Assembly (NCBI RefSeq): GCF_032854445.1
Contig: NC_088295.1
Coordinates: 24,663,385-24,727,384 of the forward strand
Length of the DNA stretch: 64,000 nucleotides
Direction of reading: 5' to 3'
From: Liolophura sinensis
Lineage: Eukaryota; Mollusca; Polyplacophora; Chitonida; Chitonidae
The notes below the pieces were generated by a model, which was not told the origin of the DNA, ran no database searches, and was given only the letters and a program-made list of their open reading frames with translations. Of this stretch, positions 10,438-55,964 are shown in pieces; positions within the stretch are counted from its first letter, which is position 1, and each line of letters starts with the position of its first letter. The translations under genes and the position numbers were made by a program.

Positions 10438-13400
10438 CTACGTAAATCGTATACTATCAAGCCTTTTTGCTAACCGAACTAACTCAAAGCCAAATTTTCC
10501 CTCAGGTTTAGGACTGGAATCGTATTTAAACATGGGGAAGGCCTTGTACTGTCTGCCCGGGACTACCTTAAATAAATCCTCTCCTCTTAAACTCTTCACT
10601 ATCATACGGACGTTTTTGTCAATGTCTGCATTTCGTCTTGTGTGTAATTTCACTTCACGCTGAATCTTTTTTGGATCAAATACAACATCTATAGAATCCT
10701 CACAAAGATCCAGAGAGGGATTGGCGTCATCTGATATTTTGGACACGAAACAATCTCTCCGACTCTTTGGTAAGTCATTAAAAAGTCTGTTTAAAATGTC
10801 GTTCATCAGGTCAGCTGGTATATTTCGGCCACTGCCACCGGTGAAATTAACTGTCCTGTTCCAGCGTAGGTCATGTCCAATCTTTTCTGGTAACCATCCG
10901 TTAACTGAAGACAGGAGCCGATGTGCTGATGTCACCGATTCAAATTTACCGGTCCGATAGAAATCCACAAGGTCCATGACCCAATAGGACAACATAGCAT
11001 CACCATCCCCTTCCCTTACAGCATCCCGACGACATAGAAGATTGAGGCCCCTCCAAGCTAGTGCTGTATTGTACCTGAATTTGAAGTCAGGTAAGTAAGT
11101 TGTGTTTGTCCTTCTTTTCTTCACCAGTCGAGAGCTTTGTCGCACAGATTCATCTTCATACAACAGTTTACATTCTTCAGTACAGTACCATTCACAGGAT
11201 GGAAGCTCTTCCTCAGAAAAGCCGATACACTCAAGGTGATACCATTCCTTCAATAAACAGTCATCCTGTGCCGCGCATCCAACCATGGCCACATCACCCA
11301 TGTCTTGTGAACACATACAATACTTAAAAGTCTTTTTGGATTTTTGTTCACATTCTTCACTGCAGTACCACTCATCTAGTTGTTGGTGTAATGTAACCCC
11401 AGCACAGGAGTAATGAAACAACTCTCCCTTGATACAGCCCCTTCCACTTTTACATCTCACCACACCTTCATCTCTGTCCTCATTACAACAGTAATCCGCA
11501 ACACCTTCTGACGGGGATATTGTTAGCGCATCTGTGTCCATCTCATGCCAAATTGACTGAACAATCTGTTTACTGACAGCATCCAGAAATGACCGTCTCT
11601 TTTGGAGAGAACATGCTTCTAGCGCCTTCACTGCGGAAGGAGGGCGATCACTTGTCGTTTTCAAGCCCATGACCTCCATTGCTGAGAGGATGACAAACGC
11701 CTCCGTTGCTTCACACATGAGATCCCATCGTTGTAAAAAACTGTTCAACTTGTCATCTGAAAAATTTATCATGTTCATGATTTGACGTAGAGTGCCTTTT
11801 TCTTCAAAGCTAGTCTCTTTCAGGAAGTCGTTGTAATAGTCTTCCAGGAGCAAGATCTCTTTTCGAAACTCCTGAGCATCCGAAATTAAAGTTTCTACCC
11901 TAAGCACATCATTGTCTCGACTATCACACCCAAAGTTTGAACTATCTCTGAATATAACAGCAGGTACAGAGTGATCACTGCCTTTCGCAATGTACTTTTG
12001 AACACAGTTAATGACATCTGTGTTTGCATCAGTCGAGCTCTCGTCCAGTGCCCCGAGATTCATTAAAAGGCTCCTTTGCACAGACTCCAGTGAGTGATTA
12101 TGACTTACATGTTCCACAGTACAGTCATCAAAGAACTCACTGAACCACTGCAAGTGTCTTGTCAAAATGCGTGACACAATTACTGTCATTCTGGACTGTA
12201 GCTCATGAAAGTCTCTAACCGAGGGTGTAAATACTGTAAATGGAATATCAGAAGCTGAAATAGTTGTCCGGTCAGAATTATCTAGACGGACCGTTGGAAT
12301 ACGATTTACTGCTAAATATCCAAGAGAATACTTTACTTTTGCATTTTGCTGGTCTACATGTGGATGACTTGCTATCATTCGATTGCAGACATTATCCCAG
12401 GAAAGTGTAAAACCAGGGTCAAGAGATTCTTCTCTTGACTGTTCAAAGTCATAACCTGATCCACGGTATTCTTCAGTCGACATATTCACGGGTATTTTGT
12501 CAGAAATATGACCATTTTCCGTGCAAGGTTCATCATCATCAGTATATATTTCATCCTCGTCGGAAGATATATCCGTTTCTGAAATATCTGTTTCGAATTC
12601 TGGTTCATTTTCCCCTAACATCATATTGACATCTGGCTCTATATGACCTGGAGGCGATAAAGCTGATGTTACTTCCTCGTCGTTAACAAATGATGAGTCT
12701 AAGGATGCATCTTCAACACTGTTAAGAACCTGTGAGTCCAAACACTCCTCCTCAGTGCCATTCAGAGTTGGTGAATACCTCTCGCCTTCTACAACATTTT
12801 CATCTCCAATAGGGCAGTCGGACATTGCCAAATCAAACTCCTCTTTTAACCTTTTAAAGCAAACATCTGTGCCGTGTGGACCAAAACACAAACCTAATTT
12901 ACTTAGCAGACTGATAGTCTTTTGTTTGGACCGCTTTCTTCTCAGAAGTAATGAAATTGTGGTGGGCAAATAATTTGCTTTGACAGGGTATTTTGCATAT
13001 AGCAGGATGGAAAGGGCAGTACCAATCATAGGCTTCAGGTCAACTTGTCTGTTATGGCCTCGACGTAGGTCATGCTCAGTTTTTCCAGCAGATACAGCAC
13101 CTATGAGCACAGTATGTAACAGTGGAGCTTTATCTCGAAGCTCCTCAATCACTTCATCCCATGGAATATCTTCCGGTGTGCTCATCAGATTAGCCTTTTG
13201 ACAGAGGCAGATATCACTGAGGAAGAGTGATTTAACCTCCCTACGTACTTCCTTCTTGACCACATTCAGAAACTGTCTTTTTGATCCGGCCGTGGCACGA
13301 TAAATCCCGCGCACGGCAAGTGGATAACGACGCTTTTGAATATAGCCTGCTATTGTATTCCACTTAGACGACTTCTTTGGTTTCTTATTCAAAAATGATC

Positions 13401-16400
13401 GTGGATACGGCTTTCTGTTTGCATCCTAAAAGACAGAAAAAAAAAACGAAGCCAAAGATATATCACACTGCAGAATTCACATTATGAACATGTTCGATTA
13501 CATTGTACATTCCTCATTCAAACTTTTTGGAATATTTATCACATGATGACTTTTTGGATAAATTATTATTTGCGCGTGAAAAACTAATTGCTTCTGTTTA
13601 CAGACCACATAAAACAGTTAAAAAACCATCATTAATTTGTAAATATTAAATCCCTAATCAGAAAAGCTCCAGCTTCACTTTCAACATTATTTAGGCCGTT
13701 CCACTAGTCTCTCCTATTGGCAGGGTAGTCTAAATGCAAACACAGTGCTCTTATGTTCATAGAATTCCATGCCAGATCTCGGGGTGAATATTATGCTTTA
13801 CATGTGTGCACAACCTGAGCTCAAGTACTTGAAGTACTTTTTACGATACCTAGCTTAACACTGATTCTAATAAACAAGACACTATGTCCTGCATTTAGAC
13901 ATTTATGATAGAGAGCACCAACGGTGGAACATCCTCTCCGTGTTATGGGTCTTTTTAATATATGTATGTAAAGCCTGAGCTCAATGCATGAGGTACTTTT
14001 TGAGATACCACCACATTTACCCTGAGATTTAAGATAGACACAGGATTACTTCAACATAAATTCTAATACGCAATAGTGTAACATAAAAACAAAACCCAGC
14101 AACAACCATCTCAGCCTGACAATGCTTTGGGTCCTGGAGCACAACGGTGTTAAAATCCAGAGCTGTCGGGTCATCCATAAGGTAAATATCCATCCATAGT
14201 CCATCAAACTGAAGTTCTCCACTCATTTCAACAACCGGTATATAAAATGGGTTAGGCCTACACATTCCCGATGTTTGCAAAGAAGAGGCCTCGGAACTAC
14301 CAAATTATAAGACTAGATTTTTCAGGGTTCGGCCCTCTGGGCGATACCCTCTTGAAATGGTCAGACTATTAACCATAAATTTGTGCTCCAACTACAGAGA
14401 AAACCGCCACACCTAACTTTACACGATGCTTGCGTATCGTCTCAAGTGAAGCATATCAAAGACGTGTCGCAGTTTGTCGCATGCTTTGGCGGCCATATTG
14501 TATTTATTTACATTCTATATGAATCCCTTAAAGAATCATCTTTTCTAGAACCACCAAACCGATTTCGTCAAATTCGGCACACCTGATTACATTTGGGTGG
14601 CAATTAAAACTTCTTAATATGAATCCTTGCCGTATGTAAACTAGGCTTGGGCTCAACAATGAATATAGCGCAAAAGTAGGTCAACTGTAAAAAGTGCACA
14701 ACTGGATCGAGCAAATGCTTTTCTGAAACTTGTTTGACGTCACGATTTTGAATTTCAAAGAATTAATTCCGCTATGGTTTTCATCTAATCGCCGAACATT
14801 TCTTTTTCTTCTGTTTTCCTTAGTAACTGTTACCAGTATAATTTATGCATAGTCTACAGAGCCGATCCCAGGAATTGCTGTTCACGACACCTACATTTTT
14901 TCCTATAATTTTAAATCAGAGGAGAGGTTGAACTTGATGAAATATGACTGCATACAAACTTCTGGGAGGAATCTGGTGCTCTAGGACACTAAGCATTGTA
15001 AAGCACTGGTACAACAGGCCAAGGAATGTTTACTGAAACTTTACTTGAATTTAGGAGTTGAATTGGAGAGTAAATAAGAGAGCAATCAAAACATAAATAA
15101 GTCAACTAGTCATCCATGGCAAACAGTGTTCCGACTCTCCTATTTCATGGGCTATGGATGAAGATCTACAGAAAGCTCACAAAGTCGTCTGGGCACTAGT
15201 AAGTCAGCTGTGTGGACACAGAAACCCACCAAATTGCCTCAGTTTGGAATAGACTGGACTCGCATCATGTCACTCTTTAGGTCTCCATTCATCAGGATAT
15301 ACATGTAGAGCTGCAGTAGTCTATGGCCTAAAAGCCAGTCTAAAGCATGACCTATAAACTGATGTGAATGACAGTCCAGTGATCTGAGATTGGTAGAGTT
15401 TTCACAAATAAGTAGACTAGCTGCAAGAATATGTCCAGTTTAGCTTCAGATGTCTATCACTAAAGGGTACAAGAACATTACAAGGCCTATTGCCTAGCAG
15501 GTTCTAATTAGTTAATAGTTGTTAATTAATTGGTGGCATGGCTAAATTGTAATTCCAAAATCTGAATCTGCCATCTCTGTGTGAGAATGGTTTCGTGATA
15601 TGAGGCCTCGGCTATTCATGAAACAGTCTGAATTCATATTATATTGTTGCAATACAGAAAATATAACCGGGTCAGCTTTGCTTTCTCTCTTTACCTAATG
15701 TATAGAGTACAAGACAATACCTATACACCTGATATTATAACCCTTTTTTTGTGATATTATATCTTATGTGACAAAAGTCTTTTCAAAAAATATATTGCAC
15801 TACATGTAATGTAACCTGAGCTTCCTGTTAATTATCTTATGTACATTGTTACACAGAATACAAGGCAAATGTTTGATAGAGAATGATTGATTTGAGGAAA
15901 TATAGATGTTTCTGTGTATTGCTAAGTGACATGTTATTTGTATGAATTTAATGTGTAACTGTCACAAAAGTCACCGGCCCCAATAGCACATTTGGCAGAA
16001 CGCCCTCTTTGGGAGCGGTAGATCCAGGGTCAATCCTGGGCCGAGTCACAATAAAGACCTTAGTTATGACTTCCTCGCTTGGCATTCAGCATGAAGGGGA
16101 TAGTGCAATGAATGGTTGACCCATATCAGTATAATGGATCAGGCGGGGCGGCTTACTTGCTTCGGTAAGGCGTCTCCGCCAAGCAGCACTAGATAAAACA
16201 GCGGTGGAAATCCTCAAATCCGCCCTGCAACAAGGAGGCACATTACATGCTCTCTAAGAACTCTTTCCTCATCATATGACTGAAAAATTGTTAAGTACGA
16301 TGTTAAACCCCAAGCACTCACTCACTCAAAGTCAACACTGTTAAGACCCCCTGGGGGCTTGCGTGAAGCCTCTCAGCCTCTGTAAGTTCAACTCCATCTC

Positions 16401-38174: not shown

Positions 38175-41100
38175 ATGTTGTGCCGTAGAGAGTGTGCAAG
38201 ACTGAACAATTGGGTGTTTTCACTGTTCCATAAGCGTGCGACTTTTGGAAGGTGCACTATTAAGAAAGTGTTAATACTGGCATTGTTGGTGACAGTCTCC
38301 TCACTGGTTTTTCTGGCCTATTATGTGGTCAACTTCAGATTTAGTCTGGTGGAGAGACAGCCCCCAGTGCCCAGTGTAAAATGTAATGATCTGACACATC
38401 AGAGCAGGCTGTCTCGCACTGGGCCACGGGACCACTCCAGTAAAGCTGGACTTCGCATTGACAGTCGTGTCTTGGTCCTGGTAGAGACCCAGTATTCCCG
38501 TTTGGGCACTGAGATTATCCACACGCTAGAGGCCAACAGAATGAAGTACAAGGTAGAGCCTGTGGGCAAATCCCTACCCTACCTCACCCACGTTGACAAG
38601 GGCAAGTATGCTGTCATCATCTTTGAGAACCTCAATTCCTACGTGAACATGGACAAGTGGAATCGGCAGTTACTGGACAAGTACTGTAAGGATTATCGTG
38701 TGGGCATGGTAGCCTTTGTACCCTCGACGGACGACACAGTGATGTCAGTCACGCTGGATGATCTACAGCTCTCGCTACAGTTCAACCTGGCCATAAAGGA
38801 CTACATGTTGAATTCATATTCAGAAATCTGGCGATTGACTCGACCCGGGGAATTATTTGAAGGAGAAATACCAGGTGATGATTGGACAGTGTTCCACACC
38901 AATCATAGCACACATCAGCCGCTGGCATATGCTCGACGTAGAGAGCCAGATTTTGCAGACTCGCCAGTGAAGGATCATGGGATGTATGTGACAGCAGTAC
39001 AAGACTTGGGATTCCTAGACGACATTAACAGAGTCATCCTTGGGAACGGTTTCCGTTTCTGGTTGCATCGTCTCATTTTCTTGGACAGCCTGTCATTCCT
39101 GTCTCATGGAAGGTTAAGTGTGTCGCTGGATCGGTATGTGCAGATTGATGTGGATGATGTGTTTGTGGGACAGTCTGGCTTGAGAATGACTCCAGGTGAT
39201 GCGGAGGTAAATGTAGATACAGTGTACTACTCACTCATCCAGTTTGGAATACAGCATGTGAAGGGTTAAAATGTGATACATTTTATTATTGTACAATGCA
39301 TCTGTAGCACAGATGTACATGTAACTGATCAAACAAATATGATATGCCTTCATTTCTGATTATGTCAGTCAGATCATACATTTCATTGAATATACACATA
39401 CAGTGTTGTAACATCTTAGTGACATTATGCATTTAAATAATATTCTCCTCTGTTCAGAGAAAATTCCATTGATTTAATGGGTTGAAATGTCTAACATACA
39501 TAAAATTGGAGAAGGAGGTCAAGAGTTCAAAAGTAGGCAGCTGAATTGATTGTTTAACAATTACTGTTGAATATTCTTAGTAGGCGGCCATGGGGGCTGC
39601 AGTAGATAGCTGTTTGTAGCCTGCAACTCGCCTTTTTGAACACCCTGCTGTATATGACAAGATTTTGGGCTGTATCTGTTTCCACATATCCCTGGAGTCA
39701 AGGCGACACGTGCAGATGCGAAAATGTAAACAGAAAGGCACACAGTTTTGTTCTGACTTTTGTCATCTCATTATGACGGACATTGGAAAAAACAATTCAT
39801 GTCTCTAACTGATAAAAAGGTTGCCGTCAAAAAGGCAATTGTTATTCAAGAAGATATGAAAAAATCTGAGTGTAAAATAAAAAAGACAGAGGAGAAATTA
39901 CAATGAAGACAGTTAAATATATTGACATAAAAAATGCCACTATTTCTAAGTTTGAAAAATGTAGCTTTATAATAGGTGGAAAATATAAGTTACATCACAA
40001 TTGTAATGTGTCCTTTTTATGTGCTTTAGGCAATGGTTGCTTCACAAGAAAGATTACAACAGCACATCCGTGGCTTCCATTTCAATCTAGGCTTCTCCGG
40101 GAAGTTCTATCAGCGTGGCACTCCACTGGAAAATGCTGGAGACACCAGACTTTTAGGTGAGCCTGACTCTGTCCTTTTATACGATTTCATTAAAGATTTA
40201 TGTTTATGACAGTATTAGAAAAAAGCAAGTATGTTTCATATTGTTTAGTCTTTCACTGTGTCCTAAAGATGTTTATTTACCAGTGAGTTCACTTCAGTTT
40301 GGTAAAGTGTTTATTTTGGACCTTTTCCTTGTGAGAGTGCCTTGGTGAGCAAGTAATCACACACATGGATTTCTATCATTATGTGATACTCCAGCTCACT
40401 CTCCTAGCTGGTGAGAGCTTGTCTTGGTATCCATATTGTTTACTGAGGTAAGGTGTTAAAGTGAGATTTGACTGGCCTTCACAAAGGAAGCAGTTGACCA
40501 AGGTTTGCACATGAACTATACCGTACTATACATAGAAAAAGGAAGGAAAAAAAATTGAAAACCCTGCTGTGTTGTAGAGAATGTGAACAAATTGTGACAT
40601 CTAGATAGATATGTGAGTTGTGTGTGGTGGATTGGCATGAACTCTGCAATTATCAGCTTGAACAGCAAAAACTGCTTGAGCATCCGTTTCCATATTCAGG
40701 ATTACCTTGCTACTAAAGTGAACATTAAGGTTGCTCTCTGCCTGTATCAGGAATCATAATAAATGGCTTTGGCTGGCCAGTACCCTGCTGTGGCTAGCTC
40801 AGTTTTCTGCTCATTACCAGCCTTTAGTAGATCCTATCTCTGTGCCAAGATAAACCAGGAATAAGCCATGTATAGCTTTGTTTCCACCCACTGCATTTCT
40901 GCTGGACTTGTTTTCTACCAGCTAGGAACAGTTGTAATTTATCATAGTCGTATAATGGAGGAATGGATGAAAAAGTTGCCTGCTAATCGGTAATAACTGA
41001 GATGGTGTATTGAGAATGTCTGATCAGGCTAGTGAGCCATTCATCACTGCTGGGCTGGCAGCTCTTACTCTGCTGCTGTGCAACCAGATTTTCACTACAC

Positions 41101-44100
41101 AGCCTCTCTGACAAACCAGACCGCTCAGCCCACACAAGTATCTCCATTCTTGTGAAAGGGCAATATGTTTTATACACAGTCCAGTAAATCACCAGGAAAC
41201 ATATCGATATCACATACTTCTGATTCATGTTTGCCCATATACCACATGTGCAAAGGAAATAAAAATCATGTCTGGACTGCTCGCCATTGATGATTGTGTC
41301 AGGCACACTTTAGACAGTGTACATGTATTACTCTCTCATAATAACATACGTGTAGTAGGCTTTTTGTGCTGAGATATTCATCAATTTGCAACAGTGAGCA
41401 TGGGACTCACGCATACCCTAAATGACCTTGAATTACCTCCACAAAAGTGCATTTTTAGAGGAAATAAATGTCAAAAAATTTATATTTGGTGCAGAAACTT
41501 ACCGTTTTTCCAGTAGAATGTCATCCAATTTTCCAAGCAAATCTCAAAACACTTTTCTAAAAATAAATAGAACTCTCAGAATCGGGAATAGTGGGCAAGT
41601 TAGTCATGGACAAAATGTATGGTCATTTAGGGTATCTAAAATTCTCTGGATACAATACATACATGTATATCTGTTCCTCTGAAGTGGATTTAACTGTGCT
41701 TGTTGTCCATCTGCTTTTCTGATTTGGGTGCCATAAGCCTGTGTTAAGTCACATTCTGTTTTAAATGTCTTCTCTTGTTACCATCCTTACCCTCCAACAT
41801 ATCCCATTATCTCAAAATGATATTGTATACATGTGTGTGCCCTGCTGCATTCATACACTTACACTTGACAGACATGTACATCTGAATGTGAGCGCCCAGT
41901 GATGACCAGGAAGTTTGGTCCTTTGAGAAACTGACAAATTGAATGGTGTGCTAAGTGAAAACTGTATAAGGAATGGCAGTTCAGCATGTGGGATTGATTA
42001 TACCTGATGTAAGATTTTGGGGAATAAGGCAAACTCTATCTCCTGTTTACTGACAGCACTTCACAACCAGGTCTTCTCTCTGCTTTATACCATCCTTTGA
42101 TGTAGATATCGGTTTAGCTATACTGTTACTTCACCTGGGACAAGCGAACTGCTCTATCAGTTTAGCCTGTCTGTAAATCTCGTTTTCTCTGCTGTTAATT
42201 ATCTGTCAGTTTTTATGAGTACACTGTGTAGATGTTGTTACTGTGTTTGTATGCATTCTGTGAGCCCACCATTTCATCTATCATGCCTCTAGTGAATTGC
42301 CATATACCCTGACATATATCCTTACCTATTTACTCTCTGGTTTGTGGTTGCGTATGACGTGACTGCTCATAGGAATGTGTGTACACACATGGTTTTTAAG
42401 TTGGTCTGAAAGTATGTGTAATCACCAGGCATCTGGGGTAATACAAGTAGATAACAAAATTCTTATGTTTGTGTTCTTGTACATTGTAGCTATTAATGTA
42501 GGGACTCATTTTAATTACCACTGGCAAAAAAAAACAAAAAACAAAAACACATACCAGGTATCCTTTAAATAAGAAAAAAGCTAATATTAAAAAGCAAATG
42601 TAAGTGGGAAAGGCTGTACAATTATAACTGTGAAGAGCACTCCATGCACAGCCATGTGTTCCCACTTCATCCTTGTGTCAAGATATGTTGAATGTAAGGT
42701 TTAACTTTTTTTTATGGCTTGGTTGTGGAAAACCCCACAGGATCTGCATGGTTTCCTCCCTCCTTAATGCTGGCAACCATTGTACTTGTATAAGTGAAAT
42801 AATATTATGAAATGAATAAATCTTTATGTCAGTGGTGAATCATGTCAGCAGGTGATGTTTTAACAGGTTAGAAAATAATGTAGTAATTTTTTTCTCCTTT
42901 TGTTAGTAATACAGTGTATAAATGTGAAATAATACTCAACTTGTATCTACATGTACTGTACAGTTTGATACTTAGAAGTCACATGTGCTAGGACTATGGA
43001 TGGTTGACTGTTGAGTCACATAACATCAACATATACTTTATATACTTGTATATTGCATATTCCTGTCCCATTTGCTTTCCTGTGACCAGCCTGGCATGTA
43101 AATGTAGTTGCTTACGCCTTTATAGAAGATCTTTTGTATAATAAAATATTTTACAATACATATTGTTTACATACAGTATATGTATGTGTGTATGTCATAC
43201 CTGTATACATGTAAGTAGGTGCATTGATTAGCACTCACCACTCCCAGCTTTGTAAAGGTTTCATAACTTGCTATACATCAGGCACGAAGAGTACATGTAT
43301 GTGATAATCTATCCCACATCAGACAAAATACCCTGCTTTTCATTGGAGAGCAACAGTCACCAGCATTGGGAACATGTATTTACATGTACATGTATTTTCA
43401 TATTGGTCAAATATATCCTTTGACCAGGTCATCTTCCTTTCTCACCCCGGCAATGATGCCTTTCGCTGAATTGATGGGTCTCTTTTGCTGGATAATTTCG
43501 TTGCACATCTGCTTAGTGACAAAATCTGCATATATTTGTCAAATTCAGTAAATCTCATTCTCTCATAGAGCTTGACAACCTTAATTTGCTGAACCGTATA
43601 TTCTGTATCCTGTCATTGAATAACAGTGTAACTATTAGTGGCAGTGGGAGGCTGTGTAACTTAATGGAAGGTATAATAATTTACACATATGCATGTACAT
43701 GTGTACATCATCATGTATGTGTAGGGTCGATCCTTGTTTTTGACTTTAGTAGGTTTTCTTCTGAAACTGTTTTGTGCCATTGCACAGTGTGTGCATATGT
43801 GTATTGTCTTGATGAACGTTAGATTGAACATCATCCCTGCTGCAAATGTTCTCATGTGTATATTACATGAACACGTATGTGTATGAAAACACTGTATGTG
43901 GTGTATCCAATACAATTTCACATGGTCATAAAAATGTACGTTCTAATTTTCCTAAATTGGGAAGTGTACTTTATAATTTTATTTGCTTGTAACTGTATGC
44001 CATGAAATGCATAAACATGTAGATGAAATGTCACACTTAAATCTTATGCAAAGCTTCTTTAGTGTGTGGCTGTGCATATTTATTGTTAGATCAGCTGTAG

Positions 44101-46924
44101 GAGAGGCCCACAGGCGTGTATGATCAGGTAAGCCATCTTCACTCTTACCTCAGAGAGGTGGGACTCTATGGGCAAGGCTCCACTCCAGGTTGGTCAGGTT
44201 ATATAAGACATCAGCATTTTAGGGAACTGAAAACATCATTGTCAGAGCCATAATATCCTGTGCCACATCAACTTGTTGCATGTAGAATTATCTTTGAATA
44301 TGTTCCTAACTTGCTTGTGGGAATGCAGCAACTGAAAAATTACTAACAAAAAACTGTGACAATAACTCTCAGTAAGCTTTTTGTTTCCTGTAATTGGAAT
44401 TTCACTGTTGATCGTGCGCGGCTATTAATAGATGCTTGTGATCTTCTTACCTCTGTCCTCTGCTGTGTTTCAGGAGTAATGCATTAGCATGGGAATAACA
44501 ATAGTTGGCTTGGCAAAGTACATACATTGCACCCACCTGTCATTCTCTGTCTTAAGTAGGTTATAAAACATGGCGAAGGGCAGGTAACTACCTGTAGGTA
44601 TCATGCATTCATGTGATTACCAGAACATGTTGCAGTGCTGAAGTTCCTAATCTATTCTAAGCTTTGACAGCCTGAAGAGCAAATAACGAAGAAAACACTA
44701 ACATGAATTATATGTCAGAGTAAGACTGTTGAGCATTGTCCAGGAAAGTAGTTTTGATTTATTGTTTTTAGAATTTTTTCAACTGAGTAAGATGCATTTG
44801 AAACATTGGTTTCCAGTATGACCTTTTCCAATCACATTGTGACACACAATGTTTAACTATTCAGAAGACATATTCATATAGATCTTTGAATGCATTTGTC
44901 ACATAAACCTTCAACTATTTCAAGCAAGAGACATTTAGGTGATACCCATTGGATCATTTACTTGGTTAAAATTCTAAATATAAAGGAAATGAGACTATTT
45001 TCCTAGGCAATTTTGAGAGGCCTTTCATCTGATATATACTGAAACAAAGTTTCTTTTCTTTTAAGGCACATAAAATATTGTTATGGTGATTTGAAATCCA
45101 TTTATCCCTTCTCAAGTGGATTTGGAATGGTGTTAAAAATGAGAAATGTATCAAGTCTACATTTGAAATTTATCCCTTGTTGTTTTGCAGAACTGAAGGA
45201 TAAATTTTGGTGGTTTTGCCACATGTGGCGTCATGAACAACCACACAAATTTACCCAGTCCGCCAAGTTGGAGCGGTCCCTACTGCAGAACTACCAGTTT
45301 GCCAAGGTAACTGATGTGTGGACCAGACATGTACTACACAGATATTGTTAGACCTGTACATGTATGAATCAAGATCTACGTTTGCAGACATAACTGCCTG
45401 GTGTTCTCAGAAGTGGTAGGGTTATATTGGAATGGAGCATGGAGATTTCTCAAAGAACTCTTACACACAACTGTCTTCTCAGTCTTTGTTTTGTGGTCAT
45501 GAACATTTTGGTGAAGCATTTTCAAACTAACTGTAATTTCTTAAAACTGAAAATCTAGGTGCATTTTGTCTCATTGAGCTGCATTTATGAAGAAATGCAG
45601 AAGCATGTGCTATGATTATGAAGATGTAGGGTAAATGTAGTAAAAGTTGGTTGTTCTCCATATTTGATAATTCTGGATGAGTAATGCAGTTATTTCTTGT
45701 TGTTATCAACTCCATGCTCTTCACTTCATTGCTTCCTATGACACTCAGGTAAGACATTATTTATATGGAGGTGTAATCTGGAGCAACCAGGTGAGTTGAC
45801 GGTAGGTGTATTCCTCGATGACAGAGTTACCCCCTCTTCCCATTTCTTCTTGCCAGCTGGATGGGTTGTCTGCACTTGGAAGGTCTGCATCTTTTATAAT
45901 GATTATCTGATGGCCATTTCTTATTGCGCAGAACTCCAGAAGCATTTTCACTGGTTTGACCACACATGGAGCCATGTACAGCCTCATTTAATAGGGAACA
46001 GCTCTCTATTGATGGAGGATATGAGAATCAATGCTAACTTTGCTAAGGTATATAATCCTATTTGTTTTGTATTATTGCTTCCAAATTAACATTGGTTGAT
46101 GCACAGATATCAAATTGTGGCTACTCATGGACATATTAACATTTTAATGCTTTAATCAGTTGCCATGTATTCTGTAAAATGTAAAATATAATTTACCAAC
46201 TTACAGTACTGTTTGAATTTGGAAAATCTGATAATCAACTAATGGGTACAGTAACAGTGCTATTTCAGTATTTGGGGTATATGATTCAAGGCAAATGAGA
46301 TATAATTTACCAGGTTTCGGTACTATAGGAATTTGAAAAATCTGATACTGTAATTGTTCAACCTTTACGCATGTTTGAAAGGTGTTCATTCAAGCATATT
46401 CTGAATGTATTTTTCTGAGTTGACTAATAAAATATATACTTTTTGTAAAGCCCTGAACCTGGACAACCAAAGTACTTTTGTCTCCAAAATCAATTTGAAA
46501 ATGTGCATAATTTACACTAGAAGTTGCTCTTTTATATGCGAAAAGGTCGAGGAAATAGGGCAATCAGCTAATGAGTACAGCAGAATTGCTGTCTCAGTAT
46601 TTGAGGTGTATGATTCAAGGAAAACGAGAAAGTAATATTTTGCGAAAACAAGTCATGCTTAATGAATTATGTAAAGGTAAGTAGACGTTTGCCAACAAAA
46701 CTCATTGTTGTTCAGGTATTGGTATTCATGTTCATAGAATGATTTCAGTGTAGTGTCATGTAGCAGCTCAAATCTTGTATTTTAGTCATGTAACCAATGA
46801 TCCGTTTAAGTCAAGTAACTGGTTTCTCCCACTGTAATGCTGTGTTTTGTTATATATGTAAAATATCCCTGAGTATGTCTTTAAAATACCAATCAAATCA
46901 ATTCATCATTCAAACCAATACATG

Positions 46925-46982
<58 letters not shown>

Positions 46983-49900
46983 GTATGTAGTGTGTGTGTG
47001 TGTGTGTGTTGATTTGATTGGTATTTTAAGACACTCACAATCAATAATATGGATATCCAGATAACAAAGTTTTCATAGGTACATACAAATCAATAATATA
47101 CCTTTCTTCTTCTCATAAATTATATGTCGTGCCATTGATGTATTGTGTACAGGACTGGGACCTGCCAGTGGATAACCAGTATGCCATTGCCCCGCATCAT
47201 TCAGGCGTTTACCCAGTCCATGAGCCTCTGTATGAGGCATGGAAAAAGGTGTGGAATATCCGAGTGACCAGCACAGAGGAATACCTCCACCTGCGCCCAG
47301 CTCGCCGGCGACAGGGCTTTATACACAAGGGCATAATGGTACGTGATGTAATCTGCATGTTGTACTATACATGTACATCTGTGCTGATAGCTGTTTATAT
47401 GTGTGAAGATTCAACAGATTTCTGTTATGTTTTTTTCAGCGTTATTATCTAAGGGAATTGTGTTTTACATGTGATTAAACTTGTGTTTTATAGGTTCTAC
47501 CTCGTCAAACCTGTGGTCTTTTTACTCACACTGTTTTCCTGGACAAGTATCCTGGTGGTCGAGAGAGACTGGATGACAGCATCAGGGGCGGAGAACTCTT
47601 CCAGACATTTCTCAGTAACCCTGTAAGTTTTCACATCTTTATGCAAATAATAAGATTAATAACATTCGGTTTTTTTGATGCATGTACATCTGTTGCATGA
47701 TGAATGCCATATTAATTCTGCTCCCACACTATTCCCTGTTTGTTTTCTGTTCAGATCAATATCTTCATGACCCATATGCCAAATTATGGCAGTGACAGGC
47801 TGGCATTGTACACGTTTGAGAGTGTTGTCAAGTTCATAAAGTGTTGGACAAACCTTCGACTGCTGTCTGTCTCGCCATTAGAACTTGCCAAAAAGTACTT
47901 CAACATGTACCCTGAGGAGGAGGACCCAGTCTGGCAGGTGAGTGGTCCTACACTCTCTGCATTTCACACAATCCCACTCAGCCTTGTGGGCTCCAGAGTT
48001 TGTGCCATGATTTGCACTGTTACATCTTCATTTAATCAAGCTAGTGATGTTCATAGCACTGCTTGTTGCTTTATAATGTTGTGTCAAAGAAAAAATAAGA
48101 TCCAAATGTACAAGCAACAGACAATCAATGATTGGCTGAAAATTCCCCAGCAGAAGTTCACGGGACGCAATGCCATTGGCTGTCAAAAGAGTAGGTTTCT
48201 GAAGTCTTTTATAGGTACAGTGAAAGAAGGGTGATTATGAATCCTATCTTGCTGGTGGGAAGAGGGCACAGTTGTGGCTCAGTATCCTGCTGACACTCCC
48301 TACATCCCCACACAATGTTCCCTGTATCACCCTGCTGGCTCAAGAGTTTATACCATGCTCAGTACATGTGTGTGTTAGTATCCCCTGATAGTCCCTACAT
48401 TCTCACACAATGTTCCCTGTATCACCCTGCTGGCTGAAGAGTTTATACCATGCTCAGTACATGTGTGTGTTTGTATCCCCTGATAGTCCCTACAGTCTCA
48501 CACAATGTTCCCTGTATCACCCTGCTGGCTCCACAGTTTAAACCATGCTCAGTACATCTGTGCGTTAGTATCCTGCTGACAGCTCCCACATTCCCACACA
48601 ATTTTTATGTGCAGGAATTTATGAACTTGACAATTCCCCACACAATTTTCCCTGTATCATCCTGCAAGGCCCCAGAGTTTAAACCATGCTCAGTACATCT
48701 GTGAGCTAGCATCCTGGTGATAGTCCCCATATTCCCACACAATGTTCCATGTATCATCCTGCTGGCTGAAGAGTTTAAACCATGTTCAGTACATCTATGG
48801 GTTAGTATACTGCTGATAGTCCCCACATTCCCACACAATGTTCCATGTATCACCCTGCTGACTCAAGAGTTTAAACCATGTTCAGTACATCTATGGGTTA
48901 GTAAACTGCTGATAGTCCCCACATTCCCACACAATGTTCCATGTATCACCCTGCTGACTCAAGAGTTTAAACCATGTTCAGTACATCTATGGGTTAGTAA
49001 ACTGTTGATAGTCCCTACATTCCCACTCAATGTTCCATGTATTATCCTGCTGGCTCAAGAGTTTAAACCATGTTCAGTACATCTATGGGTTAGTAAACTG
49101 CTGATAGTCCCCACATTCCCACACAATGTTCCATGTATCACCCTGCTGACTCAAGAGTTTATACCATGCTCTGTACATGTGTGTGTTTGTATCCCCTGAT
49201 AGTCCCCACATTCTCACACAATGTTCCCTGTATCACCCTGCTGGCTCAAGAGTTTAAACCATGTTCAGTACATATATGGGTTAGTAAACTGCTGATAGTC
49301 CCCACATTCCCACACAATGTTCCATGTATCATCCTGCTGGCTCAAGAGTTTATACCATGCTCTGTACATGTGTGTGTTTGTATCCCCTGATAGTCCCTAC
49401 ATTCTCACACAATGTTCCCTGTATCACCCTGCTGGCTCAAGAGTTCAAACCATGTTCAGTACATCTGTGGGTTAGTATCCTGCTGACAATTCCCACATTC
49501 CCACACAATTTTTATGTGCGGGAATTTATGAACTTGACAATTCCCCAAACAATTTTCCCTGTATCATCCTGCAGGCCCCAGAGTTTAAACCATGCTCAGT
49601 ACATCTGTGGGCTAGCATCCTGCTGACAGTCCCCATATTCCCACACAATGTTCCATGTATCACCCTGCTGACTCAAGAGTTTAAACCATGCTGAGTACAT
49701 CTGTAGGTTAGTAAACTGCTGATAGTCCCCATATTCCCACACAATGTTCCATGTATCATCCTGCTGGCTCAAGAGCTTAAACCATGTTCAGTACATCTAT
49801 GGGTTAGTATACTGCTGAAAGTTCCCACATTCCCACACAATGTTCCATGTATCACCCTGTTGACTCTAGAGTTTAAACCATCTATGGGTTAGTAAACTGT

Positions 49901-52900
49901 TGATAGTCCCCACATTCCCACACAATGTTCCATGTATTATCCTGCTGGCTCAAGAGTTTAAACCATGTTCAGTACATCTATGGGTTAGTAAACTGCTGAT
50001 AGTCCCCACAATCCCACACAGTGTTCCATGTATCATCCTGCTGGCTCAAGAGTTTATACCATGCTCAGTACATGTGTGTGTTTGTATCCCCTCATAGTCC
50101 CTACATCCTCACACAATGTTCCCTGTATCACCCTGCTGGCTGAAGAGTTTAAACCATGCTCAGTACATCTGTGGTTTAGTATCCTGCTAACAGTTCCCAC
50201 ATCCCCACACAATTTTTATGTGCAGGAATTTATGAACTTGACAATTCCCCACACAATTTTCCCTGTATCATCCTGCAGGCCCCAGAGTTTAAACCATGCT
50301 CAGTACATCTGTGGGCTAGCATCCTGGTGATAGTCCCCATATTCCCACACAATGTTCCATGTATCATCCTGCTGACTCAAGAGTTTAAACCATGTTCAGT
50401 ACATCTATGGGTTAGTAAACTGCTGATAGTCCCCACATTCCCACACAATGTTCCATGTATCACCCTGCTGGCTCAAGAGTTTAAACCATGTTCAGTACAT
50501 CTATGGGTTAGTATACTGCTGAAAATTCCCACATTCCCACACAATGTTCCGTGTATCACCCTGCTGGCTCAAGAGTTTAAACCATGTTCAGTACATCTGT
50601 AGGTTAGTAAACTGCTGATAGTCCCCACATTCCCACACAATGTTCCATGTATCACCCTGCTGGCTCAAGAGTTTAAACCATGTTCAGTACATCTATGGGT
50701 TAGTAAACTGCTGATAGTCCCCACATTCCCACACAATGTTCCATGTATCACCCTGCTGGCTCAAGAGTTTAAACCATGTTCAGTACATCTATGGGTTAGT
50801 AAACTGCTGATAGTCCCCACATTCCCACACAATGTTCCATGTATCACCCTGCTGGCTCAAGAGTTTAAACCATGTTCAGTACATCTATGGGTTAGTAAAC
50901 TGCTGATAGTCCCCACATTCCCACACAATGTTCCATGTATCACCCTGCTGGCTCAAGAGTTTAAACCATGTTCAGTACATCTATGGGTTAGTAAACTGCT
51001 GATAGTCCCCACATTCCCACACAATGTTCCATGTATCACCCTGCTGGCTCAAGAGTTTAAACCATGTTCAGTACATCTATGGGTTAGTAAACTGCTGATA
51101 GTCCCCACATTCCCACACAATGTTCCATGTGTCACCCTGCTGGCTGAAGAGTTCAAACCATGCTCAACACAGTTGTGGCTCAGGATCCCCTGATAGTCAC
51201 CACATCCCCACACAAGGTTCCACATATCTCCGTGCTGGCTCAAGAGTTTAAACCACACTTAGTACATCTGTGGCTCAGTATCCTCCTAACAGTTGACAAT
51301 AATGTTATGTTTTAATGCATTCATTCAAAATAAAGGAATGGATGATCTTATGAGGAAAATGAAAGTGTTCTGTTTATAATTATGAATTGCAGTACTTAGT
51401 GTTAATGGTGTGCTATAATATTGCAGATTTTGATTCTTTTCAGAATCCCTGTGATGACAAACGTCATATGGAGATCTGGTCTGTGAATAAAACTTGTGAT
51501 AAACTACCACGTTTTCTAGTCATAGGCCCACAGAAAACAGGTATGTTTTGTTGAACATTCTCTTGATGAGTAGAATAAGTTGATGATATCCCTTTTTATG
51601 TTGTGTGCATCAAGTTTGTTTGATGTGAATAGCATACAGTAAAATTGAAGACCCATTTGTTGTCTTAGTCAAAGAAAAGGCATCTGGATGAAAATTCTAA
51701 CTGCCCTATGGGAATTTGTTCTTTGATCGTGAAATGTAACCATTCAATGGTGATTGTCAAGTGTTTAAGTGAATAATATAGAAATGGAAAAAAGTTTCAT
51801 TTTGGGGGCATTTTTGCTACTATTTTGCATATTTTCCATTTAGCAATTGTGAGTTTTCAAAGGTTATGTCAGACGTGAATTGGTATGACCATTGCTACAA
51901 GTCTGGTACAGGGCCTGTACATAGGCCTATTCCCCACTTCCCTGTTCTTCACGTAAATTGTGTAGATTTACGCAAACTAACATTGGAGTACAGAAAACAA
52001 TAATAAGAAATATATCTGCCATGCTGCAGATGTGCTTAATGTATTATGTTTTGATTTACTTTTTCAGGCACTACAGCATTATATACATTCCTTGCCATGC
52101 ATCCAGCCATCCTCAGCAATTACAAAAGCCCAGAAACATTTGAGGAAGTTCAGTTTTTTAATGGGAAGAACTATTACAAAGGCCTTGACTGGTAAGACAT
52201 GTCAGATTGAAACGAATCTTCCTGTGGTTTAATAGCATTTCGTTTGTTTGGAGCACTGTGATCTATTGAAGAAATGTGTCCTAATAAAAATGTTACAACT
52301 TGACTACTTTGAATTTGATTTTTTCCTTTTTTAAATACTTCGTATCAGATTGCAATTTTGGTAATGTAACATGAAACTCTTGAAGCAAAGTAAGTGTGAT
52401 GTGATAAAGCGTGCCCTGCCCTGGCTGATGTACATGTGTAGCTTTACTCAGAAACGAAAATAGAAGAATATCTTTGTTGGGTGGTACATAAATGACAATA
52501 CAGGTGCATACGTAGGTGTGCACAGTTGAGCACCACTTTTTTGTGCTTATTTTATTTAATATCTGCATGTAATATTTAAATTTTCAGGTACATGAACTTT
52601 TTCCCAGTCCCAGAGAATGCTTCTGCCAAATTTTTGTTTGAAAAAAGTGCAACTTATTTTGACAACGATGTTGTTCCATTTCGGGCATACTCGCTGTTAC
52701 CAAAAGCAAAGCTGATAACTATTTTGATCAGCCCGGCCAAGCGTGCCTACTCTTGGTACCAGGTGAGATTATTCTCCTTGTGAGTCTCCATGCTGAATGC
52801 ATTATCATCAGGTTATGAAATGTGTGTTTTCATCACTGTAGATATTAATCAAAGTTGATTTGGAAAATGTTTTTCTTCACTAAGTCTTATAAATGCCTTA

Positions 52901-55290
52901 TACTGTAGATGAAATGGAAATTGGAAGGGCAACCATAAATGCATGGTTATTGGGCTAAACTAGCACTTTGTCAACTTTGAAGAAGGAATTTAATATTGAG
53001 TGTCATATTGCAGTTGACTTACGGTTTGGTAAACGAGGGTTTTATTGCTTTCATTCATGGCCAAGTCTAGCTGTCTGATCAGACACTGTCAATATTTGTC
53101 TATTCTTTCAGCTGTCAATCACATCTAATCAACACAGGTGTGAAAAAAGGGGACAAATAAGATTAAAATCGTTTAATTTTTTTAGAGTGTGCTTTCCACG
53201 GAAATAGAGTGATGTGCCCGAGAAGTTTGTTTTACATAAATATCTGATATAACATAATGGGACTTGATATGTTTGACATATTAAAGCACTTTTACTCTGA
53301 TCCACATCATACATTGATTTATGGAGTCATATTTTACATTTCTACATTTAATTTCTTCGCAGCATATGAGAGCACATGAAGACCCGACTGCTCTGAATTA
53401 CACATTCTATGAGATAATCACTGCCAATGACTTGTCGCCACGAGGCATGAGGGAACTCAAACACCGCTGTCTAAACCCTGGCATGTACGCGCATCACCTT
53501 GAGAAATGGCTGGATTATTACCCGGCCCGACAGGTCAGTTGTTAACTGTTCAAACTGTGATAACTCAGTGCACCTGTGACATACGGACACAGTTCATGTC
53601 TGGTGGATAGTTAACTCAGTCTCAGCTGGTGGTAAATCTAGATCAGGGACTGACAGCAGTATTAAAACTGACACTCAGTCCAACATATCTTGAGTAATGA
53701 GTTAATATTGAAAGTGGCATGTGAAAGTCAATACCAAAAGTGACATGTGTCTGATTAATCAATCCATTGCAGATTTTCATCATTGACGGGGAAATGTTGA
53801 AGAGAGACCCGGCACAAGTGATGACCAAAGTACAACGCTATCTTCACATCGAACCATTTGTAGATTACACTAGGAATTTAAGGTGAGATCAAGTTCGAGT
53901 TAAGTGGTCTCCAGCATGAATTGCTGATAGGCAATGCTTATTCTTATTCAATATCATGTGGATATTTCTCTCTCCAAATAGACTCCACAGTCTAATCGTC
54001 ATAATGAACTTATTGACCCAAATATGGATTATATCACATGTTATTAATATCCAGCAATGTAATGAAGGATTCCTTACGTCACATGGATTCCTCACAGATT
54101 ACATGGGTGCCACACCCATCCCTTGGGTTCCTCCCACACCACAAGGGTGCCTCACTTATTACATGGATTACTCACACGTCACATGGATTCTTCACACATC
54201 ATATCAATGCCTCACACATCACATGGATTCCTCACACATCACATGGATTCCTCACACATCACATGGATTCTTCACACATCATATCAATGCCTCACACATC
54301 ACATGGATTCCTCACCCATCACATGGATTCCTCACACATCACATGGATTCCTCACACATCACATGGATTCCTCACACATCAATGCCTCACACATCACATG
54401 GATTCCTCACCCATCACATGGATTCCTCACACATCACATGGATTCCTCACACATCACATGGATTCCTCACACATCATATCAATGCCTCACACATCACATG
54501 GATTCCTCACACATCATATAAATGCCTCACACGTCACATGGATGCCTCACACATCTCATGAGTTCCTGACACAACACATGTTTTTTTTATACATCATATG
54601 GATTCCTCACTACAAGCATACCTTATCTCAAATAACCATTCCTCACTTCTGATATAATTCGTTTATATGTACCCCTAACTTTTATTTGTCACTTCAGACA
54701 TTTTCATGTACATTATTTCAAAAGGCATATTACGGTAATATTTATGAATTGTATGGTAATGATTTATCTTTGCAGAAAAACAATGCCAAATTTTGTGTTT
54801 TTGCCAGCCATTGAGTTAACTTATATTAGTGTTAGTAGAATCAATTCCATTATGCATTTATAAGGCCACAAGGAAGCCTAATTAGCTATTAAGAAGCCTG
54901 ACTACCCTAGGTGACTGGGACTTTAGGGTTTGTGAACAGTTTTCAGCTTTCTTCTTGGCTGAGAAGAGACGCAGGTAGTGGTGACTTTCTCTTTTATAAC
55001 TATATGCCTTATGAACCAGGAAGGACAATATTATTTGAATGACCTGACGGAGTGTGGCTTTCTATTACAGGTATGATGCTTCCAAAGGCTTCTTCTGCCA
55101 GATTGTGAATGAAGACAAGACAAAATGTTTGGGTCGCAGCAAAGGTCGCTCTTACCCGCCAATGGATGGCCGAGCCGAAACCTTTCTCCAGCGCTTCTAC
55201 AGACGCCACAATGTTGTACTGTCTAAACTCCTGTCTCATTTGAACCAGCCTATACCACAGTGGCTTCGAGAGGACTTGAACCAAGTATAG
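38175..55290 (+). CDS. NDST: Heparan sulfate N-deacetylase/N-sulfotransferase (bifunctional, Golgi)
   Basis: Exons: 38175-39206, 40030-40156, one of 45191-45306 or 45932-46047, then 47153-47338, 47494-47622, 47755-47937, 51444-51540, 52068-52191, 52588-52762, 53363-53533, 53773-53882 and 55071-55290. All are GT-AG with matching phases, giving 889 residues (vertebrate NDST1 is 882). ATG 38,175 has A at -3. The enzyme removes acetyl from GlcNAc of heparan sulfate and N-sulfates it with PAPS. Visible: an N-terminal type II anchor (residues about 31-52), CE4-like DVDD (325-328), HxxxH (397/401 in either alternative exon), the PAPS 5'-binding loop GPQKTGTTAL with Lys622, Glu650, the 3'-phosphate segment [14 protein letters not shown], and the Cys826/Cys836 pair near the C terminus. 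By position these match the catalytic Lys, the catalytic Glu and the disulfide of NDST1. Both activities look intact. Confidence 0.95.
39207..40029 (+). other. NDST intron 1 (after first coding exon)
   Basis: Phase-0 intron with GTAAAT donor and TGCTTTAG acceptor. Nothing else is recognisable. Confidence 0.7.
41443..41630 (+). repeat. Unclassified interspersed repeat, copy 1
   Basis: AAGTGCATTTTTAGAGG, TTTTTCCAGTAG, and AGAACTCTCAGAATC followed by TTAGTCATGGA occur in the same order as in 55,965-56,310. No terminal inverted repeats or coding capacity were seen. Confidence 0.6.
42712..42830 (+). repeat. Diverged SINE family A fragment
   Basis: Recognisable by TGGTTTCCTCCCTCCTTAAT, GCTGGCAACCATTG, TATAAGTGAAATAATATT and a terminal AATGAATAAAT. 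It is strongly decayed. Confidence 0.55.
45191..45306 (+). CDS. NDST: NDST alternative exon 3a (N-deacetylase HxxxH segment)
   Basis: 116 bp, preceded by TTGTTTTGCAG and followed by GTAACT, phase 1 in and phase 0 out. It encodes 39 residues (387-425, counting the split Glu codon), starting [20 protein letters not shown] and ending QFAK. The HMWRH (HxxxH) pair matches the family segment F-x-H-M-W-x-H-x-Q-P-H. It is a paralogue of exon 3b 626 bp downstream: same length, same phases, 17 of 39 residues identical. It has Phe-Trp-Trp-Phe and Met after the first His, as in other NDSTs. Confidence 0.9.
45932..46047 (+). CDS. NDST: NDST alternative exon 3b (N-deacetylase HxxxH segment)
   Basis: 116 bp, preceded by TTCTTATTGCGCAG and followed by GTATAT, phase 1 in and phase 0 out. 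It encodes [20 protein letters not shown] onward to ANFAK. It keeps the HxxxH pair (DHTWSH) and the QPHL found in other NDSTs, while the flanking residues differ from exon 3a (Phe-His-Trp-Phe-Asp against Phe-Trp-Trp-Phe-Cys). No stop or damaged splice site is present, so it appears functional. Splicing 3a to 3b directly puts 3b in the wrong frame and meets TAA after 19 codons. Confidence 0.88.
46817..46910 (+). repeat. Decayed SINE family A 3' end
   Basis: CTGGTTTCTCCCACTGTAAT, then GTAAAATATCCCTGAGTATG and ACCAATCAAATCAATTC are recognisable family blocks. It is immediately followed by the TA/TG microsatellite. Confidence 0.55.
46922..47011. repeat. Compound (TA)n-(TG)n microsatellite
   Basis: A pure alternating TA tract of about 50 bp followed, after ATGTATGTAG, by a TG tract of about 20 bp. 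Such tracts are length-polymorphic and assembly-sensitive. Confidence 0.9.
48265..51292. repeat. 96-bp minisatellite, about 30 units, inside an NDST intron
   Basis: The unit runs TAGTCCCCACATTCCCACAC, AATGTTCCATGTATCACCCT, GCTGGCTCAAGAGTTTAAAC, CATGTTCAGTACATCTATGG, GTTAGTAAACTGCTGA. The period is 96 bp, measured between TAGTAAACTG at 50,701 and at 50,797. The last half-dozen units (about 50,560-51,130) are almost identical and the 5' units are more varied. Three units carry an extra block of about 45 bp (TTATGTGCAGGAATTTATG) near 48.6, 49.5 and 50.2 kb. Because 96 is divisible by 3 and the unit lacks stops in some frames, long open frames arise on both strands. They are not genes. The array lies in the phase-0 intron between 47,938 and 51,443. 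Confidence 0.95.
54060..54612. repeat. 20-bp minisatellite, about 25 units, in the last NDST intron
   Basis: The unit is ACATGGATTCCTCACACATC, with variants that insert ATCAATGCCTCACAC or ATATCAATGCC. It lies between exons ending 53,882 and starting 55,071. The 20-bp unit is open in all three forward frames and each frame cycles through the same 20-residue repeat, producing three overlapping frames (53,956-54,561, 54,038-54,652, 54,123-54,521) that are artefacts. Confidence 0.93.
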
Positions 55291-55890
55291 TGTATGTGTG
55301 AACATTGTATCAAGAACAGGCCATCATTTGTGTGTGTGTTACTGAGTGGCTAGTCTGGTTGCTATGATGTACATGTACATATTGATGGAGTATATGTGTG
55401 AACAGTGTACCAAGAACAGGCCATCATTGGTGTGTGTACTACTGAGTGGATAGCCTGGGTGCTATGATGTACATGTACATATTGATGGAGTATATGTGTG
55501 AAGTGTACCAAGAACAGGCCATCATTTGTGTGTGTGCTACTGAGTGGATAGCCTGGGTGCTATGATGTACATGTACATATTGATGGAGTATATGTGTGAA
55601 CAGTGTACCAAGAACAGGCCATCATTGGTGTGTGTGCTACTGAGTGGATAGCCTGGGTGCTATGATGTACATGTACATATTGATGGAGTATATGTGTGAA
55701 CAGTGTACCAAGAACAGGCCATCATTTGTGTGTGTGCTACTGAGTGGATAGCCTGGGTGCTATGATGTACATGTACATATTGATGGAGTATATGTGTGAA
55801 CAGTGTACCAAGAACAGGCCATCATTGGTGTGTGTGCTACTGAGTGGGTAGTCTGGGTGCTATGATGTACATGTACATGTTGATGGAGTG
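55286..55890. repeat. 100-bp minisatellite starting at the NDST stop codon (3' UTR)
   Basis: About six units. ATTGATGGAG recurs at 55,381, 55,481, 55,579, 55,679 and 55,779, with GTTGATGGAG at 55,879, so the period is 100 bp (one unit is 98). Each unit has GTGTACCAAGAACAGGCCATC, CTACTGAGTGGATAGCC (approximate) and the palindrome ATGTACATGTACAT. The first, most diverged unit begins at the terminal Val-stop codons of NDST (GTATAG). The array therefore probably lies in the mature 3' UTR. Confidence 0.9.
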
Positions 55891-55964
55891 TATGTGTCTA
55901 TATGTGTTACTGGTGGAATGTGATGCTGTCCAATGAACACACTCATTGTGTTTGCTCTAAAAAC

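What the first reader, a model, noticed from the sequence alone, without database searches (positions are those of the whole stretch)
45191..46047. Mutually exclusive exon pair swapping the HxxxH active-site segment of NDST
Two tandem exons of identical length (116 bp) and identical phases encode alternative versions of the same 39-residue segment of the N-deacetylase domain. Both keep the HxxxH pair (HMWRH and HTWSH), which with the upstream DVDD resembles the metal-binding motifs of CE4-type deacetylases. The flanking residues differ (17/39 identical), which indicates an old, maintained duplication. Switching exons would alter the catalytic pocket without touching the sulfotransferase domain, so one gene could give NDST isoforms with different deacetylation activity or substrate preference. 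Vertebrates reach NDST diversity through separate genes. I know of no description of this arrangement.
Basis: partly seen in the sequence, partly recalled or inferred. Interest (0 to 1): 0.88.

Follow-up and report, generated by a model that had tools for sequence, protein, structure and literature searches.

The report
Swappable active-site exons in chiton NDST
The one detected gene for the enzyme that starts sulfation of heparan sulfate in what is probably a chiton carries two interchangeable exons for the heart of its deacetylase active site, so a single gene could make two enzyme versions; no RNA evidence was available here.

Summary
Exons A (45191-45306) and B (45932-46047) are both 116 bp, have AG/GT borders and the same phase, and each completes an 889-residue NDST. 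They encode the same 39 residues, 17 identical, and both keep the histidines that bind the catalytic metal in human NDST1 (H389, H393). Taking both exons, or neither, shifts the frame to an early stop, so only one-exon messages are productive. No other coding exon of this gene has a second copy in the window, and NDST has one detected locus in the 609-Mb genome, probably the chiton Liolophura sinensis. Simulations exclude long neglect of either copy. Both match the Pfam deacetylase profile about equally. B keeps the N-glycosylation site equivalent to N401 of NDST1; A loses it and has charged residues at positions 392, 394 and 398, where B and human are uncharged. The likely reading is a mutually exclusive exon pair giving two active NDST forms with altered deacetylase clefts, as in coq-2. 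Transcripts, age, conservation in other species and enzymatic difference are untested. It is a new member of a known kind.

The parts
38175..39206 (+). NDST coding exon 1: start codon, membrane anchor (by eye), N-terminal domain, and the DVDD metal/base aspartates
   Evidence: alignment to NDST1
40030..40156 (+). Coding exon 2 (127 bp), shared upstream neighbour of A and B
45191..45306 (+). Alternative exon 3A (116 bp): [39 protein letters not shown] (first residue split with exon 2)
45307..45931 (+). 625-bp intron between the alternatives; canonical GT/AG; no pairing to flanking introns above shuffles found
45932..46047 (+). Alternative exon 3B (116 bp): [39 protein letters not shown]; carries an NSS sequon at the N401-equivalent position
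47153..47338 (+). Coding exon 4 (186 bp), shared downstream neighbour of A and B
47494..47622 (+). Coding exon 5 with LPRQTC
47755..47937 (+). Coding exon 6 with MTH (H529 equivalent, proposed general acid)
   Evidence: role from PMC10864358
51444..51540 (+). Coding exon 7, GPQKTG of the sulfotransferase domain
52068..52191 (+). Coding exon 8, sulfotransferase
52588..52762 (+). Coding exon 9, sulfotransferase
53363..53533 (+). Coding exon 10, sulfotransferase
53773..53882 (+). Coding exon 11, sulfotransferase
55071..55290 (+). Coding exon 12 and stop codon

Best explanation
The gene encodes an invertebrate NDST. Exons A and B are a tandem duplicate maintained as mutually exclusive alternatives. 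Shown: same length, phase and splice borders; both homologous to the deacetylase segment; both intact and not long free of selection; including both or skipping both gives an early stop. Inferred: the spliceosome picks one exon per transcript, and messages with both or none are removed by nonsense-mediated decay. The two enzymes share the metal triad and the sulfotransferase domain but differ in the residues around the metal histidines. B is somewhat more human-like and can be glycosylated at the N401 equivalent; A lacks that site and has R, E and K where human has S392, M394 and L398. I think this tunes which stretches of the heparan sulfate chain are N-deacetylated, and how fast, rather than turning deacetylation on or off.
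For: Gene model and frame test. Homology and chance control. Only A/B is repeated among the 12 coding exon positions. Neutral test from the most favourable start, the human segment itself, 5,000 runs per distance: at 0.5 substitutions per site 184 runs keep A's score to human and 20 keep B's, with an open frame and both histidines in 15 and 4; at 0.75, 1.0 and 1.5 none of 5,000. Metal-binding histidines identical in A, B and human; alanine mutants of H389, H393 and D320 abolish NDST1 activity (PMC10864358). Sequon in B and human, not A, and glycan density at N401 (PMC10864358). Both alternative donors lack G at +5 against 1 of 10 other donors (Fisher p 0.045). Precedent: coq-2, two 134-nt mutually exclusive exons that switch the enzyme core, found also in molluscs (PMC7434440, passages).
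Against: No transcript evidence. No related species could be compared. No pairing of intron elements above shuffles, and the 625-nt intron argues against steric exclusion (general knowledge), so the device enforcing exclusivity is unknown beyond the frame. The donor comparison is small and post hoc, and by U1 pairing energy the A and B donors (-6.5, -5.7) lie inside the range of the other ten (-4.4 to -11.7). A recent loss of constraint on either copy is not excluded: at 0.25 substitutions per site, 349 (A) and 297 (B) of 5,000 neutral runs keep score, frame and histidines.
Confidence: 0.8

Rival explanations
1. One copy is a dying duplicate: it still looks intact but is no longer used, or is used only at noise level.
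For: No RNA data. A copy released from selection for about 0.1 substitutions per site would often still look sound (score, open frame and both histidines in 1,522 of 5,000 runs from the human segment; A from a B-like start: open frame in 61% of runs, A's score reached in 24.5%). In this assembly one of two homologous exons of a probable coq-2 gene measures 132 nt against 134 for the other and its reading breaks between frames, showing that such a pair can look damaged.
Against: Both NDST exons have intact borders, length, phase and frame, and match the Pfam profile about equally well (47.4 and 44.9 bits). Only a fairly recent loss fits.
Confidence: 0.1
2. The pair works mainly as a level control: unproductive messages (both or none) are made on purpose and decayed to set NDST amount, and the two proteins are equivalent.
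For: Both and none each give early stops (codons 445 and 394).
Against: Equivalence does not need 22 of 39 residues to differ, or two constrained versions; skipping a single exon would suffice.
Confidence: 0.06
3. The swap is an on/off switch: one isoform is a poor or dead deacetylase that acts mostly as sulfotransferase or as a competitor.
For: Large changes next to the metal histidines relative to human in A (P388C, S392R, M394E, L398K) and in B (W385H, P388D, M390T).
Against: The two residues of this exon shown to be essential in NDST1 (H389, H393; PMC10864358) are kept by both; 13 of 39 positions are identical in A, B and human.
Confidence: 0.15

Closest known systems
coq-2 mutually exclusive exons 6a/6e (C. 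elegans and parasitic helminths, annelids, molluscs; PMC7434440, passages read)
   Same: Single-gene enzyme; two tandem homologous exons of equal non-triplet length (134 nt in C. elegans) remodel the enzyme core and switch the product; reported in molluscs.
   Different: Backed there by RNA data and, in C. elegans, by exon removal; different enzyme; here only sequence evidence.
Vertebrate NDST1-4 paralogues (PMC4359090, PMC10864358, passages read)
   Same: Same enzyme, same domains and metal ligands; a means to have several NDST forms.
   Different: Separate genes; here one gene and one 39-residue segment.
Tandem duplicated exon substitution events (human catalogue, PMC9741552, abstract and passages read)
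   Same: Homologous tandem exons swapped to tune one region; described as mostly ancient.
   Different: The term NDST does not occur in that paper's main text.

Membership tests
NDST (bifunctional N-deacetylase/N-sulfotransferase) | HSNSD-CE deacetylase domain | tested here: met
   PF12062 matches over the cut-off in five places, all in this gene; A and B separately
NDST (bifunctional N-deacetylase/N-sulfotransferase) | Deacetylase active-site residues D319, D320, H389, H393, H529 (human numbers) | tested here: met
   All present in both isoforms
NDST (bifunctional N-deacetylase/N-sulfotransferase) | C-terminal sulfotransferase domain with GPQK | tested here: met
   GPQKTG and the following exons; PF00685 match at G000 C1:24715448-24716263, inside this gene, E 4.1e-5, spanning introns and so with stops
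NDST (bifunctional N-deacetylase/N-sulfotransferase) | Enzyme activity | not testable with these tools
   Needs protein
Mutually exclusive homologous exon pair | Tandem homologous exons, same phase, coding the same segment | tested here: met
Mutually exclusive homologous exon pair | Messages with both or neither exon are unproductive (common, not universal) | tested here: met
   Stops at codons 445 and 394
Mutually exclusive homologous exon pair | Both exons used in transcripts, one at a time | not testable with these tools
   No RNA reads held
Mutually exclusive homologous exon pair | Cis device enforcing exclusivity (short intron, minor-class splice sites, competing RNA pairing) | tested here: inconclusive
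   Intron 625 nt, GT/AG borders, pairing no better than shuffles in the stretches tested
Mutually exclusive homologous exon pair | Conserved in related species | not testable with these tools
   No animal genome other than G000 is held; viral and prokaryote collections gave no relative

The most novel reading that the evidence does not exclude
Chitons, and perhaps other lophotrochozoans, write two heparan sulfate patterns from one NDST gene by swapping the metal-binding exon: form B, glycosylatable at the N401 equivalent and more human-like, begins N-sulfated clusters on plain chain, while form A, without that glycan and with extra cationic charge near the metal, prefers or extends already sulfated stretches. 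The splice ratio would then set cluster length, doing in one gene what vertebrates do with NDST1-4.
Probability: 0.25. Interest if true: 0.78.

Novelty: new member of a known kind. Interest (0 to 1): 0.57.

Why it matters
NDST sets where heparan sulfate becomes sulfated, and the invertebrates surveyed have one NDST gene (PMC4359090). If splicing swaps the deacetylase active-site segment, one gene can give two patterns, and two natural enzymes differing in 22 residues become a clean test of what sets NDST cluster length and substrate choice, which is hard to separate among vertebrate paralogues.

Tried and rejected
Other copies of the exon elsewhere: none found; the B peptide has two matches in G000 at E up to 10, and PF12062 has one locus.

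Relatives in viral and prokaryote contigs: none (one scan each).

RNA pairing as the exclusivity device: a whole-stretch duplex test (40 shuffles per pair; 20, 29 and 8 as good or better) and a 36-nt local test (20 shuffles per pair; 7, 5 and 19 as good or better) show nothing. One search forced near-global duplexes and is a poor test; one search is the better one, but it used only about 660 nt upstream of A, 588 nt of the middle intron and 647 nt downstream of B. A TGCATG scan of 300 nt upstream of A, the middle intron and 300 nt downstream of B found none.

Neutral simulations: my first version evolved each copy from the other one. Its result for B (0 of 30,000 runs reach B's score) is biased, because A starts with a lower score to human than B has, so I do not rely on it. 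One search starts both from the human segment.

dN/dS between A and B: NG86 gave dN 0.65 and dS 2.96, which is saturated and not used; LWL85 and YN00 failed.

Recent segmental duplication or haplotype artefact: rejected, since A and B share 59 of 116 bases. Leaving out the self-overlap, a comparison of the two neighbourhoods gave one 59-bp match, which is the 5' half of the two exons themselves (E 0.032), and otherwise only 10-29 bp matches with E of 0.4 or more.

A same-length exon-pair scan was useless as a control: the 12 rows printed for the NDST region were all satellite pairs, and the rows printed for L004 had negative scores. The coq-2 pair was found instead by tblastn. One search prints 133 for the second coq-2 exon because I cut its donor one base early; one search gives 134.

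Exon length comparison with zebrafish: skipping ndst1b exon 6 removes 186 bp (1292 to 1106; PMC4359090), the size of exon 4 here, but that paper puts the critical cysteine in exon 6 and here it lies in the next exon, so I draw nothing from it.

Other heparan sulfate enzymes: PF06662 has one match and PF03016 eight; no two of these cover the same profile stretch as close neighbours, but the searches can miss short exons, so this is no firm control.

Full report
What is there. The window is G000 C1:24663385-24727384. A gene on the + strand, 38175-55290, encodes an 889-residue NDST from 12 coding exons per message. The model was built from the sequence, with GT/AG at every intron and no internal stop. 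A 278-residue deacetylase stretch of each isoform aligns with human NDST1 over residues 2-278 (A 397.8 bits, B 405.8 bits). PF12062 finds five matches in 609 Mb, all exons of this gene.

The pair. Exon 3A (45191-45306) and exon 3B (45932-46047) are each 116 bp with the same phase. They encode 39 residues at the same place, human 379-417, the first codon being split with exon 2. Identities: A-B 17/39, A-human 16/39, B-human 20/39; the rest of the aligned stretch is 149/238 identical to human. None of 200,000 shuffles reached the A-B score. Among the 12 coding exon positions only this one has a second homologous match in the window at E up to 5, apart from one chance hit of 11 residues at E 4.0.

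Frame logic. 116 is not a multiple of three. With both exons the frame runs into a stop at codon 445; with neither, at codon 394. Only a message with exactly one of them can make NDST. Removal of the others by nonsense-mediated decay is inferred.

Is either copy dead? I let a sequence evolve without constraint from the most favourable start, the human segment itself, and asked how often it would still resemble human NDST1 as well as A or B do. At 0.25 substitutions per site, 4,015 and 2,474 of 5,000 runs keep A's and B's score, but only 349 and 297 also keep an open frame and both histidines. At 0.5 these are 184 and 20, and 15 and 4. At 0.75, 1.0 and 1.5 none. So long neglect is excluded for both under this simple model; a fairly recent loss is not. 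An earlier version agrees for A but is biased for B. The Pfam profile rates the two alike (47.4 and 44.9 bits), so neither is clearly the standard form by that measure, although B shares more residues with human.

What changes. H389 and H393 bind the catalytic Ca2+ with D320; D319 and H529 are the proposed base and acid; alanine mutants of all five lose activity (PMC10864358, passages). D319, D320 and H529 lie in shared exons and both histidines are in both alternatives. Thirteen of 39 positions are the same in A, B and human, and 22 differ between A and B. A has R, E and K where human has S392, M394 and L398, and B has S, V and L; B in turn has D at 388, just before the first histidine, where A has C and human P. 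A has 7 K/R and 4 D/E, B 3 and 4, human 3 and 2. B and human have an N-glycosylation sequon at 401 and A has none; the cryo-EM paper saw density for the first GlcNAc at N401, not good enough to model. [quoted passage not shown] this step is inference, and I had no coordinates to place these side chains.

Splicing signals. Both acceptors resemble those of the other exons. Both alternative donors lack G at +5, against 1 of 10 other donors (Fisher p 0.045), which would suit regulated exons but is a small post hoc comparison; U1 pairing energies are within the range of the others. No intron pairing above shuffles. The 625-nt intron is too long for simple steric exclusion (general knowledge).

Organism. 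Size and scaffold number (609,464,459 bases, 632 contigs) nearly equal the chiton assembly published as Liolophura japonica, 609,495,693 bp in 632 scaffolds (PMC11068029, passages), later corrected to L. sinensis (PMC12441733, whole text). The mitochondrial order nad3-nad2-cox1-cox2-atp6 read (gene names by eye) fits chitons and some other lophotrochozoans from recall. The small difference in total length is unexplained, so this is probable, not proven.

Precedent and control. coq-2 has two mutually exclusive exons, 134 nt each in C. elegans, that remodel the enzyme core; the same arrangement is reported for parasitic helminths, annelids and molluscs (PMC7434440, passages). In G000 a UbiA-family gene that I take to be coq-2 (named by recall) shows two neighbouring homologous exons, one 134 nt and one 132 nt whose reading breaks between frames. 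So this genome probably holds a known pair of this kind, and the NDST pair is the better preserved of the two.

Literature. Nine searches were answered. Five sought the arrangement or NDST splice forms. One search required two of three terms ('mutually exclusive exons', 'N-deacetylase', 'heparan sulfate'); papers with more terms rank first and all 20 rows listed of 453 show no 'mutually exclusive exons', so none held all three. One search listed 6 papers, one, 20 of 52, and three. By title and start of abstract none of those listed describes alternative NDST exons; of them I opened only PMC4359090 and PMC10864358, as passages and one section of the latter. The library lacks most subscription journals and preprints, and public gene models of other molluscs may already list the two forms.

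Verdict. Real, precise and probably functional; a new member of a known kind at a striking place in an enzyme with one detected gene. The missing piece is RNA, for which tissue data exist.

Noticed in passing
L004:2464-2595 and 2944-3077 (G000 C7:53966000-53972500): Two tandem homologous exons of a UbiA-family gene, probably coq-2; one is 134 nt, the other 132 nt and its reading breaks between frames near G and C homopolymers, so it is either damaged or misassembled. It resembles the form tied to rhodoquinone synthesis (recalled).
   Followed up: partly
window 48281-51280: About 3 kb of mostly 95-96-bp tandem repeats inside the intron between NDST exons 6 and 7.
   Followed up: no
window 55289-55897: A 100-bp tandem repeat, about six copies at 95% match, begins at the NDST stop codon and would form the start of the 3' untranslated region.
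   Followed up: no
window 54079-54610: A 20-bp tandem repeat of about 27 copies in the intron before the last NDST exon.
   Followed up: no
window 46881-47029: Perfect 21-bp inverted repeat (arms 46881-46901 and 47009-47029) around AT and GT repeats, in the intron just before exon 4; it could form a hairpin in the transcript.
   Followed up: no
window 46186-46629: Two families of direct repeats (77 nt at 79%, 48 nt at 83%) in the intron after exon B.
   Followed up: no
G000 C99 and C632: Mitochondrial genomes assembled head to tail: seven cox1 matches on C99 about 15.5 kb apart (one of them shorter), and one on C632.
   Followed up: no
window 10441-13425, - strand: Open frame of 995 codons with cysteine-rich, PHD-finger-like stretches by eye; Pfam gives only a sub-threshold match to DUF6589 (18.3 bits, cut-off 27). 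Perhaps a mobile-element protein.
   Followed up: partly
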